A stretch of DNA of 64,000 nt from Vitis vinifera (taxonomy: Eukaryota > Streptophyta > Magnoliopsida > Vitales > Vitaceae): assembly GCF_030704535.1 (NCBI RefSeq), contig NC_081821.1, positions 449,001-513,000 on the forward strand, read 5' to 3'. How positions within the stretch are numbered: position 1 is the first letter of the stretch; every line of letters starts with the position of its first letter. The position numbers were made by a program, and so were the translations under genes. The notes below the pieces were generated by a model. The model was not told the origin of the DNA. It saw only the letters and a list, made by a program, of their open reading frames with translations, and did not search any database. Below, one piece after another: positions 1 through 28,115 of the stretch.

Positions 1-559
1 TTAAAGAGAAGGAACCAAAAACTTGTTAGTTCATAAAACCGACCATGTAGGCGGTATAATATGAAAACATAAACTTAAAAACAAAGCTTAATTAAAACCG
101 ACCATGTAGGCGGTACAAGAACATAAAATAAAATGAAAAACAAAACATAATTAAAAACCATCCATATAGGAGGTAATCAAAACATACTTATATATTACAT
201 AAGGAGAAATATCTTACAATGGATAAGGGAAGAAAGCTTGAAGAAAGCTTGGAGAAAGCTTGAAAGCTTGAAGAGGTTACATGATGAGAGAGAAAGAAGA
301 GAGAAGGGAGAGCTTCAGCTTGGGAGAGAAACAGAACTAAAATTAAGCGTAAAATGAAGCGTAAAATGAAGCGTGCTTACAAATGAGGACCGAGCCTCCT
401 TAAATAGGCAAAAAAGGAATAGTAACCGACCATGAACAGTAACCATGAATAGTAGACCCGTGCTTGAATAGTGAATAGTGAACAGTAAAGGGAACTGTAG
501 CAATATTGACTTTTGACCCGGAAGCTTGCTTTCGGCTGGAATGACTGCTGATCAGTTAA
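1..559 (-). promoter_or_regulatory. Unit 1 intergenic region: TATA box and leader repeats
   Basis: The region downstream of ORF2 on the minus strand. The reverse complement of 399-406 gives TATTTAAG, the likely TATA box of the pregenomic RNA promoter, at the same place as in the other units. Further along the transcript lie a long pyrimidine tract and three copies of the leader repeat (157-174, 97-114 and 38-55 on the plus strand). The primer site would lie beyond the left edge of the window. Confidence 0.65.
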
Positions 560-1858
560 TCAGGGAGGAATATATTCCGAGCGGTGATCCATTAGGAGCT
601 GAGTATCTTGAATAGTGGATTTGAACGGTAAAGGATCAATCTTTTTGCTGCAAAATATCTGATGTAGGGAATCTGCAGCAATGAGATGCCCCATGTTTTT
701 TGGGTAGGCTTCAAAGTCTCTGCTGATGACTCTGGCTCTCCAATGCTTGATTTGCTTAATAATTGGTTCTCCGCAAATGTCGGATTGAACTAAGGGACTG
801 GACAGAAGAGTAGGTCTTCTATTCTGGTAATGAATATTAACATAGTGTTGTGCTGGAATAACGTTGCCTCTAGAAATCCATTCAGGTGCTTTGCTAATAA
901 AAATGGCATCAGCAAACTTCTTGTTTAGCTTAAAACCTTGAGTTAAGCTTAGATTAACCTTTCTGCCAAAATTGCTAGCTTGACTTGGATCAGAACAGAT
1001 GAGTTGATAAACCAAACCATAATCAAGAAGTTTTTCAGGAGTTAGGATTAAAACTTCCCCATTAAAGGCAAGGTTAATTGGCTGGTAGTACTGTAGATCA
1101 ATGCAAGCTCTGCTGATAGTAAAATTCCTGTTGCAGTTGCAAATTGGCTTGTTGTCTTGTTGATGAAGAAGTGGTTCAGTACAACTTCTGCAAAGCTTTG
1201 AGCCATCAAATTCCATTTCCTTGGTTAAATTTAATCCTGGAACACTGAGACCAGGAATGGCTGAGAAATAAATGTGCAGATCCTGAAGATAAGCCGAAAT
1301 AAAAATTTGTTTTTCTTCTGCACTGGACTTGGCCTTTTCACAAATTAGCTGATAAAGATCAGCTGGCTTAAGAGTGGACAAGATCTCACTCCTTCTGTGA
1401 AACATTCTAAAGATAATGCACTCCTGCTCATCCTTACTTAATTTCTCATCCACCAGTGGGGTGAATGGTTTTTTCTCACCAATTTCCAGTGGGGAAAAAG
1501 GGGCTTGGCTTATATCTTTTTTGTGAAAATTAGCTATTTCTAGCTTTTTCTCAAGGGTCCTGCACCTAGCCTGCAAATCACAAATACTTTTATGAACAGA
1601 TAAGGGGTTAGTATCAAAAGTAGATAAGTTTAAGGGGATGGGTTCTTCCACCAAAGGTAGAGAACCAGAAATATTTCCTTCTTCCACAACAGGGGAGGAA
1701 GGATGCTTAAGAATAGGAGGATTAGGATCAGAAGTAGATCCCTGAGATCTCGAAGTAAAATCATAATACAAAGGCTTAAATTTTTCTGATAAGACTGAGT
1801 GAGGTTTCATGTAAGATGATGATTTCTTAAAGGATTGCTTTTCTGTTTTGGGAGCCAT
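560..1858 (-). CDS. Type A ORF2 protein, function unknown
   Basis: A 432-residue protein if translation starts at the ATG at 1858. A start nine codons upstream would need GTG, and ATG fits better because type B keeps an ATG at the equivalent place. The ORF overlaps the end of ORF1 in another frame. I see a Ser/Pro-rich N-terminus ending near a PLYYD motif shared with the type B ORF2 module, a short coiled-coil-like stretch, and a cysteine cluster (CRSC, then CNCN, then another Cys) in the middle. No enzyme motif is visible. It is identical to the unit 4 copy at 22891-24189. A florendovirus-type ORF2 product of unknown role is the best description. Confidence 0.75.
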   Translation of the reverse strand: MAPKTEKQSFKKSSSYMKPHSVLSEKFKPLYYDFTSRSQGSTSDPNPPILKHPSSPVVEEGNISGSLPLVEEPIPLNLSTFDTNPLSVHKSICDLQARCRTLEKKLEIANFHKKDISQAPFSPLEIGEKKPFTPLVDEKLSKDEQECIIFRMFHRRSEILSTLKPADLYQLICEKAKSSAEEKQIFISAYLQDLHIYFSAIPGLSVPGLNLTKEMEFDGSKLCRSCTEPLLHQQDNKPICNCNRNFTISRACIDLQYYQPINLAFNGEVLILTPEKLLDYGLVYQLICSDPSQASNFGRKVNLSLTQGFKLNKKFADAIFISKAPEWISRGNVIPAQHYVNIHYQNRRPTLLSSPLVQSDICGEPIIKQIKHWRARVISRDFEAYPKNMGHLIAADSLHQIFCSKKIDPLPFKSTIQDTQLLMDHRSEYIPP

Positions 1859-24855: not shown

Positions 24856-27800
24856 TGGTTTGTTAGCCGTGGATAGGCGTTTGTTAGGCTGTAAGAGGGT
24901 TGGGGTGACGTCTCATAAGGTTTGTCAATCTGCTATTAGGCTCTAGATCAAAAACCCTAAAATGAGTTCAATTTTCCGAACCATGTCTAGGAGATCCAGT
25001 GATTCTCAAGATACTGTTGTAAACAGTGAAGAGATCAATTATCCTAAGATTCAAAATGATTTAGATGATTGGAAATTACCCAAGGTGTCTAATCAAGAAA
25101 TTTATAAGAAAGGAACCTTTAAGTTCTTCACAGATTATACCATTAAGACCTCTGAAATGACAGTCAGTTTAGAACAAGACGACCAAGTCATAAGACTTCT
25201 AGATAACAGATCCGTTGAAAAGCATAAGAAAGATGGCTATAATTTCATACACTTTGGTATGATTCAAGTAGCAGCTAAGCCTTTGACAAGATTAGGTTTA
25301 AACACCGCCATTGTCATGTGTTTAAGGGATAATAGGCATCTCGAATATCGAGATTCTATTATAGGCGCAGTCCAAGCTGGACTGAATGATGGCCCAGTTT
25401 ATTTCCAGTGTTATCCTAACTTCACAGTTAGATTAAGAGATGCAGACATCTTAGATTCGGTTGTCCTGCATATTAAGACTCATGGCTTTAAGATTAAACC
25501 AGGAAACAGTCCTGTTTCTATCATAACCAGGTTTGCCTATAAGAGTATGAACACAAGCGTTGGATCTGGGGCTCTTTGCACCAGTCCTAAAGGTGAGACC
25601 ACCTATTTTCACTCTGATATGCTAGATAAGTCGGATTTCATCATCCCCAAGAAGATCTTGTGGAAAGATGTTGATTTCCCTGAAAATTGGCATTTTGCTA
25701 ATGCTGTTCCAGCCATAGCACAGCGTTCTGAAAGTATTGAACAAATAGTTCAATATCCTGATGGAGGAGGAGAACTGGTCTTCTCCAAATCTTTCAGACA
25801 TTCCAGCAGCCCTAGAGTTTCTGTTTATGAACCCTCTAGAGCTTCAAGCTCTTCCATCCCAGTTAGAACCACTAGGGAAGAAGGAGGATCCAGCTCAGGA
25901 AACCCTAAGAACGTTAAGCTAACTGGTGTCAGAAGTTACACCAATGTGGCTAGACCATTTTACAGTGAAGAAAATGAGTCTACTCAGGAATCCCAACAGG
26001 ATGAGTCCCCTGTTATGTCTCCTACCTATTCTCAGATGATTAACACAATAAGCCTAAGTGATGAGGACTTTGAGATCAACAAGGATCTCTTAAGAAAGGA
26101 CTTCTATTCTGAAGTCAATAAGCAAAGAAATGATTGGTTCTTTAACACTGTCCCTAAGGTCATTAGAACCATTTACCAAGAAGAATTCTATGCCTACTTA
26201 AGACAAGAAAAGAAAAATATTAAGTTTTGGATCTGGTTTGAACTCTTCAAACAAGAGGAATATCCAGATTATCCCTTTAAGCGTATAAAGGTTACCAGTA
26301 GTAATAATGAAAATAAGCCATATGAATTCTCTAAGGATTTCCAAGAAAATCCCCAAGTCAACCAAGCTTTTGTCAATAGGATTAATCAGAAGATTAAGGA
26401 TAATCTTGTTACTCCTTTGACTGATCAACCTGATAAGAGAATCAACATGATTAAAGGTGATATTAGTTCAGAAGAAGAAGCTGATGAACTAATTAAGATG
26501 TTTGAGGAACCCCATAATCAAATTATTAACAACTTAGAAACCTTTAAGACTAGGAATTACTATCCTAGGCCTACTTTTCCTGACATGCAGTTTGAGGAAA
26601 GAAATCAGTATACTCAAGCCTCATACACCAGTGGTACTATCTATGAATGGAACATAGACGGTATGACCGAGTATAACATACTCACTAAGCTTCAAGAAAT
26701 GACCATGGTTAGTACAGCCTATAAATTAAACAATAGACTGCCAGATCATGCTGTAGCTCAGACCATTGTTGCTGGGTTTACAGGTCAGCTTAAGGGTTGG
26801 TGGGATAATTATCTCACTTTTGATGATAAGAATAGTATCCTTAAAGCCCATAGGATTAATGAGAGTAATGAAGTGGTTAAGGACGAAGATGGCCATGATA
26901 TTGAGGATGCAGTGGCTACTCTAATCTACTCAATATCCAAGCACTTCATTGGAGATCCTGCAAAAATTAAGGATAAAACTGCAGATCTCTTAACCAACCT
27001 TAAGTGTCCCAAGCTTCATGATTTTAGATGGTATAAGGAAGTCTTCCTAACCAAAGTCATGCTAAGGTCAGATTGTAACCAGTCTTTTTGGAAAGAAAAA
27101 TTCATCTCAGGATTACCCAAGCTTTTCTCTGAGAGAATTAGGATCAAGATAAGGGAACAGTATAACGGTCAGATCCCTTATGATAAGCTAACCTATGGTG
27201 AGATTATAAGCATTGTCACAGGTGAAGGGATTAAGTTGTGCAATGACTTCAAGCTTAAGCAACAAATGAAGAATGAACAAAAAATCTACAAGAATGAATT
27301 TGGATCATTCTGTAGCCAGTTTGGTTTCAGCCAAAAAGAAACTATGCCTCCCTCTAAGCAAAAGCCAAGCAGGAAGCCTAGCAAAGATAAGTTTTACCAC
27401 AGTAAGAGAGGTACCCATGACAACTATAGGATGAATGATACTAAGCATTCAAGGCACGTCCAAAGAAGAGTCAACAAAGATACCCAGAAAAAGGTAGAAA
27501 CTCCTTTAGATGTCAAGCCAATTATCTGTTTTAAATGTGGCAAAGTTGGCCATTATAAAAAGGATTGTAGAGTTAAGCAAAAGATTAACAACTTAAGTGT
27601 CTCGGATGACCTAAAAAATATGCTTTGTAAAGTAATGTTAAACTCAGATTCTGAATCAAGGACTGATTCAGATAATGAAGATGATATTAATCAACTAGAT
27701 AGCAGTGGCGATGTTTCTAGCCAATCTTCTAGTGACCAAGATGTTTGTATTAAGGGTAATTGTAATTGTCGTCCTAAAACCATAAATGTCATAAGCCAAG

Positions 27801-28115
27801 ATCAGGAATTCATCTTAGATACTTTAAGAAAAGTTGAAGATGAAAAAACTAAGCAAAATCTTTATGAAGTTTTTAAGAAATCTGTTGTTAAGGTAGAAGC
27901 CAAGAAGACTGTTAATCCCTATAACCTTAACGATATCTTAAACAGGTTCGACCAGCAGTCTCCCAAGGATGTCAGCATTAAGGAACTTCATGAAGAAGTT
28001 AAGCAGCATAAAAAGGAGATTAAGGAGTTAAGACAATTCATAAGTGTAGGTCTCTCTGATCTCCAAGATCAAATCAATAGAATTGGCAACCAAGAAATCC
28101 ATACGGATATTCCAG
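24856..28115 (+). mobile_element. Endogenous caulimovirid unit 5 (type B), truncated at both ends
   Basis: The last unit of the array. Its start has a 107-bp deletion relative to the other units: after TGGT at 24856 the sequence jumps to the stretch before GTTAGCCGTGG, removing most of the primer site and the upstream half of the 3' leader. Its right end breaks off at 28115, in the spacer just before the protease, where an AT repeat and host DNA begin. Confidence 0.88.

What the first reader, a model, noticed from the sequence alone, without database searches (positions are those of the whole stretch)
1..28115. Two complementary pararetrovirus genome types in one array, apparently a bipartite system
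Type A (units 1, 4) has movement protein, protease, RT and RNase H but no coat finger. Type B (units 2, 3, 5) has movement protein, coat region with CCHC and protease but no RT. The gaps are precise: A has about 20 residues where B has about 488, and B has about 30 where A has about 431. Units are each about 6.2 kb. Florendoviruses with bipartite genomes have been proposed; this locus holds both parts joined in one array with open frames. Neither type could package and reverse transcribe alone, so mutual complementation is the simplest reading.
Basis: partly seen in the sequence, partly recalled or inferred. Interest (0 to 1): 0.92.

Follow-up and report, generated by a model that had tools for sequence, protein, structure and literature searches.

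The report
Giant array of two-part grapevine pararetrovirus
This stretch of the grapevine genome is one end of a very large block of integrated plant-virus DNA in which a virus known since 2014 to have split its genes over two DNA circles left both circles side by side, together with traces of the two circles swapping the part they share.

Summary
In detail: five pararetrovirus units, A (1, 4: movement protein, protease, RT, RNase H, ORF2; no coat) and B (2, 3, 5: movement protein, coat with CCHC, protease in 2 and 3; no RT). The host is Vitis vinifera. Bipartite florendoviruses with these components, including compound A+B insertions, were described in V. vinifera in 2014 (PMC4241990): the headline idea is already known.

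New here: (1) the window holds the right end of a ~333 kb insertion with TA repeats at both edges. (2) A and B share ~2.1 kb (intergenic region, leader, MP) at 95-100%, while their proteases differ with dS ~1.25, dN/dS ~0.1; recent host-side deletion from one parent is rejected. (3) One A unit is an exact chimera: B-type to MP nt 1015, A-type from nt 1184, on an A body. (4) B has two forms with different C-terminal proteins; the window's form shows almost no similarity to A's ORF2. (5) Five other loci, at least, hold A and B together. Co-replication remains inferred.

The parts
1..6114 (-). Unit 1, component A (continues left of the window)
1827..5912 (-). A1 ORF1: MP, protease, RT, RNase H; no coat domain
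560..1858 (-). A1 ORF2 (432 aa counted from the ATG)
   Evidence: ATG position by identity with A4
6112..6135 (.). Head-to-head junction of units 1 and 2; both broken ends lie within 12 nt of the tRNA-Met primer-binding site
6122..6133 (+). Primer-binding site of B2 (others at 12360 and 18624)
   Evidence: the tRNA-Met complement is recalled
6122..12359 (+). Unit 2, component B, 6238 nt
6335..11611 (+). B2 polyprotein: MP, coat, CCHC, protease, C-terminal extension; no RT
8900..8941 (+). CCHC zinc knuckle of B2
10022..11611 (+). B2 C-terminal part: RNase H C-terminus, then an extension with almost no detectable similarity to A ORF2
12360..18623 (+). Unit 3, component B, 6264 nt; polyprotein 12573-17852
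18624..24858 (+). Unit 4, component A, 6232 nt to the next PBS position
18837..22922 (+). A4 ORF1; RT motif YIDD at about 22065, protease DSG at about 21033
22891..24189 (+). A4 ORF2, 432 aa, in another frame than ORF1
18624..20162 (+). Common region of A4, second part: leader and MP residues 1-442, 98-100% identical to B
24269..24858 (+). Common region of A4, first part: intergenic region with TATA-like box at 24341 (counterparts 11846, 18087)
24860..28116 (+). Unit 5, component B, cut at both ends
28116..28127 (.). Right edge of the insertion in a TA repeat (one of only two such runs of 5 or more in the window)

Best explanation
This is the right-hand end of a ~333 kb endogenous insertion of a bipartite florendovirus in Vitis vinifera. 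Component A supplies reverse transcriptase/RNase H and its own ORF2. Component B supplies the coat protein and, as a C-terminal extension, a protein related to sequences that follow RNase H or RT in soybean and pigeon pea relatives. Both carry MP, protease, promoter region and primer-binding site. Shown: domain complementarity; a ~2.1 kb common region kept 95-100% alike while the rest diverged; a chimeric unit with a crossover inside it; many junctions broken at or next to the PBS; both edges at TA repeats. Inferred: both pregenomic RNAs were primed by tRNA-Met, copied by A's RT and packaged by B's coat in co-infected cells; exchange in the common region kept the shared cis signals matched; viral concatemers were captured at a double-strand break in a TA repeat, possibly with later amplification in the chromosome.
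For: Domains. A-B: IGR 2-5% substitutions plus indels, leader 0 (A4), MP 1.6-1.8% (A4), against protease core 101 of 137 residues identical, dS 1.25, dN/dS 0.10. B2/B3/B5 coat region dN/dS 0.02-0.08; MP 3-8 synonymous to 0 nonsynonymous changes, so units diverged while under selection. Chimera A_354691: 0 differences from a B unit in MP nt 1-1183, 0 from an A unit in nt 1016-1326, 13 and 10 the other way (Fisher 9e-7, cut placed after seeing the sites); a 744 nt body piece identical to the next A unit. 284 of 861 informative site pairs fail the four-gamete test over 23 MP copies. In 6 A units of 138 kb, two body pieces have one haplotype each but MP has 4. Three of four broken ends at junctions 1|2 and 4|5 lie within 12 nt of the PBS. 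Edges. Other mixed loci. Published model.
Against: No divided genome is known among extant caulimovirids (2014 paper). An AU test on MP (247 columns, 14 rows) did not reject A rows as one clade (p 0.51). In the protease tree one A-type row, P0264, does not join the other A rows (87/78, weak). The A/B RNase H C-terminus (71 codons) gives dN/dS 0.99 and the B2/B3 C-terminal part 0.71, so constraint is not seen everywhere. Identical bodies also fit unequal crossing-over or gene conversion inside the chromosome, so where the exchange took place is unproven. One of five head-to-head joins seen lies inside the coat region, away from the PBS. About 160 kb of the array was not read, only marked by matches. 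RT phylogeny against named genera was not possible.
Confidence: 0.78

Rival explanations
1. A and B are two deletion derivatives (defective genomes) that both depended on an undeleted single-component helper florendovirus.
For: Vitis piasezkii gene models P0177, P0182 and P0183 join MP, coat, protease and RT; two of the three are in the protease tree, as sisters of the B clade with A outside (93/81, not a starred fork). A 2023 review names an unsegmented possible parent, VvinAV. The 2014 authors did not exclude a helper.
Against: Both components kept open frames and low dN/dS in the protease after a long separation, and together carry the domains looked for, so a helper is not needed. V. vinifera A virus is reported decayed with no entire locus while VvinBV has many.
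Confidence: 0.15
2. Host-side deletion: A and B arose in the chromosome from integrated full-length copies, then the array was duplicated.
For: Tandem units with identical bodies show that local amplification is possible.
Against: A-B protease dS ~1.25 against ~0.05 in MP, with purifying selection in the protease; a 26-base A marker next to the coat-loss join occurs 43 times genome-wide (up to 2 mismatches, control 0), on many chromosomes.
Confidence: 0.03
3. The common-region exchange and most of the 333 kb are products of unequal crossing-over and gene conversion within the host chromosome, after capture of a few A and B units.
For: Ten A copies in the array are identical over 594 nt while 29 of the 30 other listed copies are at 91-99% (one rounds to 100); B C-terminal piece: 18 of 25 listed array copies share the top score.
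Against: Of five head-to-head joins in C17:339-477 kb, four have at least one end at or within about 12 nt of the PBS, as linear viral DNA would; several unlinked mixed loci exist.
Confidence: 0.4
4. Assembly artefact: collapsed or misjoined repeats.
For: Long near-identical inverted and direct repeats are hard to assemble.
Against: Units differ by specific SNPs and indels; both edges fall at TA repeats, a published signature; the genome has 21 contigs for 496 Mb.
Confidence: 0.06

Closest known systems
Vitis vinifera B virus / D virus, bipartite florendoviruses (Geering et al. 2014, PMC4241990)
   Same: Host species; component sizes 5.5-6.9 kb; A lacks coat, B lacks RT; near-identical intergenic region and MP; compound A+B insertions; TA repeats at the insertion site.
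   Different: The paper gives component B an extension homologous to A's ORF2. That matches the array's B' units (69% nt) but hardly the window's B units. I could not open its supplement, so the species name is not assigned.
Oryza sativa B virus and Sorghum bicolor virus (same paper)
   Same: Components A and B of the same layout.
   Different: Different hosts; separate origin according to the paper.
Prunus persica virus array, 5.36 copies in about 42 kb (same paper)
   Same: Multi-copy florendovirus array.
   Different: One genome type; about one eighth the length of the array here.
Begomovirus DNA-A/DNA-B common region (recalled)
   Same: Works like: two circles share one control region kept alike.
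   Different: Unrelated virus; here the shared region also codes for MP. No membership.

Membership tests
Florendovirus | MP, coat with zinc finger, protease, RT, RNase H in one polyprotein order | tested here: met
   Met only by A and B together; neither alone
Florendovirus | Second ORF of 45-58 kDa, specific to the genus, usually in another frame | tested here: inconclusive
   A has a 432 aa ORF2 in another frame but among 34 hits it matches only Vitis, unnamed contigs and one Shorea protein; B's fused extension matches Glycine, Cajanus and Citrus proteins
Florendovirus | tRNA-Met primer-binding site at genome start | tested here: met
Florendovirus | AP-RT-RH1 phylogeny inside the florendovirus clade | not testable with these tools
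   No named caulimovirid references to hand; three scans of viral contigs gave no relative
Bipartite florendovirus | Components of 5.5-6.9 kb with complementary domains | tested here: met
   6232, 6238, 6264 nt
Bipartite florendovirus | Intergenic region >90% and MP >87% nt identical between A and B | tested here: met
   IGR common part 95-98% by substitutions (indels extra), MP 98.2-98.4% for A4
Bipartite florendovirus | Compound A+B insertions | tested here: met
   This array and at least 5 other loci
Bipartite florendovirus | B extension homologous to A ORF2 | tested here: not met
   For the window's B: only a 35-residue match at the start (43%, E 4e-4), no profile match (shallow profiles); met by B' units outside the window. 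The paper notes more divergent ORF2 homologues in monocots, so this row lowers the fit little
VvinBV as a species | At least 80% nt identity in RT-RH1 to the named sequence | not testable with these tools
   Sequence is in a supplement that could not be opened
Florendovirus insertion | Insertion at TA repeats | tested here: met

The most novel reading that the evidence does not exclude
A segmented reverse-transcribing virus whose segments are held together by continual exchange of a protein-coding common region (promoter to MP), and which had begun a third genome type: A (RT), B (coat plus the relative of the soybean/pigeon pea protein) and B' (coat plus an A-type ORF2). The grape array would be a single capture of that mixed population as concatemers.
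Probability: 0.25. Interest if true: 0.78.

Novelty: new variant of a known kind. Interest (0 to 1): 0.5.

Why it matters
According to the 2014 paper and the 2023 review, divided genomes are otherwise unknown among reverse-transcribing viruses, and the florendovirus case has rested on complementarity, similarity and compound loci. A measured contrast in divergence (common region against protease), an exact inter-component chimera and a single-site array of three genome forms make the question testable: exchange inside viruses, or inside the chromosome. The array size also bears on how plants take up viral DNA at fragile TA repeats.

Tried and rejected
Recent deletion origin: rejected by the dS contrast. 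Tandem duplication of one unit in situ: rejected for B2, B3 and B5, which differ under purifying selection. Rfam: nothing at gathering scores. Viral contigs: three scans, no relatives. tblastn of ORF2 against phages: none. AlphaFold models of ORF2 and of the B extension had mean pLDDT 40.5 and 38.7 and were not searched. MP topology did not reject a single A clade; six A/B diagnostic MP residues of the window do not sort by component in other database rows, but most look private to the window's A. A link of A ORF2 to viroplasmin rests on one Shorea protein, P0033, with a Cauli_VI domain outside the shared part: a lead only. Genome-wide count of the B marker and of B' extensions: not completed.
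Full report
What is there. The window begins inside an array of pararetrovirus units that ends at 28116. Unit 1 (1-6114, minus strand) and unit 4 (18624-24858) are type A; units 2 (6122-12359), 3 (12360-18623) and 5 (24860-28116, truncated) are type B. Pfam on pieces finds MP in all five, RT and RNase H only in A, coat domain and CCHC only in B, and protease in the four units that reach it. The rest of the window has host genes (SURNod19, a mitochondrial carrier, PPR genes) and no DNA match to the array.

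Host. The PPR gene at 56580-58451 is identical to a V. vinifera protein at all 595 aligned residues (a 29-residue stretch is missing from that gene model). The window is G000:C17:449001-513000 of a 496 Mb genome.

Known status. Geering et al. 2014 (PMC4241990; I read the Results as far as the dating section, the first part of the Discussion, and passages) describe components A and B in V. vinifera with these domains, sizes, similarities and compound insertions. A 2023 review (PMC10377300, passages) repeats this, adds sugar beet, and names VvinAV as a potential parental form. Other papers were seen as passages (PMC9719215, PMC5766536, PMC3299709, PMC9794742, PMC4411674) or in search listings. 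I saw no account of a 300 kb mixed array or of inter-component chimeras in those nine listings and the passages named; supplements were not open to me, so this is a limited absence.

Common region. From 80 nt (A4) or 173 nt (B2, B3) after the last stop codon through MP residue 442, A and B differ by 2-5% (IGR; A4 2.0-2.8%, A1 2.3-5.0%, plus indels), 0 (leader, A4) and 1.6-1.8% (MP, A4); beyond that, alignable parts are ~70%. Synonymous divergence is ~0.05 in MP and ~1.25 in the protease core (137 codons, near saturation), with dN/dS 0.10 there and 0.16 over the longer protease piece; the RNase H C-terminus (71 codons) gives 0.99. The shared region has therefore been replaced in one or both lineages after they separated, and by inference the separation predates integration. 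B copies differ among themselves mainly by synonymous changes (coat region 20:2, 27:7, 19:7 syn:nonsyn; MP 7:0, 8:0, 3:0), so they look like distinct viral genomes. The B2/B3 C-terminal part is looser (dN/dS 0.71).

Phylogeny. In a protease tree of 49 rows (44 different), 24 rows, Vitis wherever the source is named, form a clade (100/100). Window A joins V. vinifera P0032 and V. piasezkii P0034 (95/88), window B lies in an 18-row clade with rows of both species (100/99), and two undeleted V. piasezkii models are sister to that B clade (93/81, not starred). One A-type row (P0264) does not join the A group, and MP data do not reject a single A clade (p 0.51). The exchange claim thus rests on the divergence contrast and on the chimera, not on MP topology.

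The larger array. Fifteen 10 kb stretches left of the window were read: fourteen are 97.9-100% viral and the leftmost contains the edge. Viral sequence starts at about C17:143868, right after an 11-unit TA run at 143847-143868 (the exact first viral base was judged by eye). The right edge meets a TA run at window 28116-28127, where only 0.16% of the window lies within 20 nt of such a run. Span about 333 kb. The unread ~160 kb is marked by matches with no gap above 16.4 kb between markers, and a stretch inside the largest gap was read and is viral. Each search scored only the best 40 candidates, so at least 10 A and 28 B-type coat copies lie in the array.

Chimeras. Over 23 MP copies in 138 kb, 42 sites are informative and 284 of 861 pairs fail the four-gamete test. 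Unit A_354691 equals a B unit over MP nt 1-1183 and an A unit over 1016-1326, follows a B unit, has a B-like upstream region (1 mismatch and 48 gap nt against B, 27 and 80 against A), and its 744 nt A body piece is identical to the next A unit. In the six A units, two body pieces (744 and 1290 nt) have one haplotype each while MP has four. Window A1 and A4 show the same: 0 of 4027 differences in the body, 5 of 539 plus three indels in the IGR.

Junctions. At the 1|2 and 4|5 joins of the window, 3 of 4 broken ends lie within 12 nt of the PBS (the chance figure 3e-7 assumes uniform breaks and a margin chosen after seeing them). In C17:339-477 kb I count five head-to-head joins, of which four (near 348.2, 398.2, 445.85 and 455.1 kb, the last being the window's) have at least one end at or within about 12 nt of the PBS and one (344.29 kb) lies inside the coat region. 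Of five tail-to-tail joins, three (near 373.1, 433.46 and 448.92 kb) have an end within about 25 nt of the PBS. This fits linear viral DNA opened at the priming site (inference), mixed with other breaks.

Two kinds of B. Units near C17:399-404, 433-439 and 386-391 kb, and others, carry an A-ORF2-like extension (69% nt to A) with an A-like intergenic region; the window's B carries another extension. The latter shows only a 35-residue match to the start of A's ORF2 frame (43%, E 4e-4) and no profile match (hhalign probability 0.05%, no hmmsearch hit; shallow profiles). It matches Glycine P0274 (30% over 432 residues, following an RNase H C-terminus 80% like A's), Cajanus P0265 (following RT) and Citrus proteins. 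Of 154 proteins from two searches, 40 match A ORF2, 22 match the B extension beyond its first 150 residues and one both. If that extension is the ancestral ORF2 (inference), A plus B is a fuller set than A plus B'.

Elsewhere. Of 31 clusters (successive markers under 50 kb apart) built from 120 listed matches (40 of 298, 40 of 418 and 40 of 292 candidates), 6 hold both A and B markers (C1, C6, C8, C9, C17, C18). A 26-base A marker next to the coat-loss join occurs 43 times with up to 2 mismatches, control 0.

Verdict.

Noticed in passing
L013:1-5495 and L010:4464-10000 (C17:399001-404495, 433464-439606): B' units: same coat (98.3-98.6%) and protease as B but an A-ORF2-like C-terminal extension and A-like intergenic region.
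   Followed up: partly
window 22891-24189: A ORF2 resembles (31%) part of a Shorea laevis protein, P0033, that also carries a Cauli_VI (viroplasmin-type) domain.
   Followed up: partly
L016:4119-4757 (C17:373119-373757): Tail-to-tail A-A junction inside the intergenic region, both ends within about 20 nt of the PBS position.
   Followed up: no
L020:2581-6175 (C17:341581-345175): Patch of short rearranged viral pieces in alternating orientation, including a head-to-head join inside the coat region.
   Followed up: no
G000 C18:1071757-1104511; C6:22643702-22691884: Further loci with several A and B markers within tens of kb; not read.
   Followed up: no
P0177, P0182, P0183 (Vitis piasezkii gene models): MP, coat, protease and RT in one model, as in an undivided relative; they also hold part of A's 443-640 segment that B lacks.
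   Followed up: partly
window 56580-58451: The open frame of the host PPR gene has 29 residues that the V. vinifera database model leaves out.
   Followed up: no
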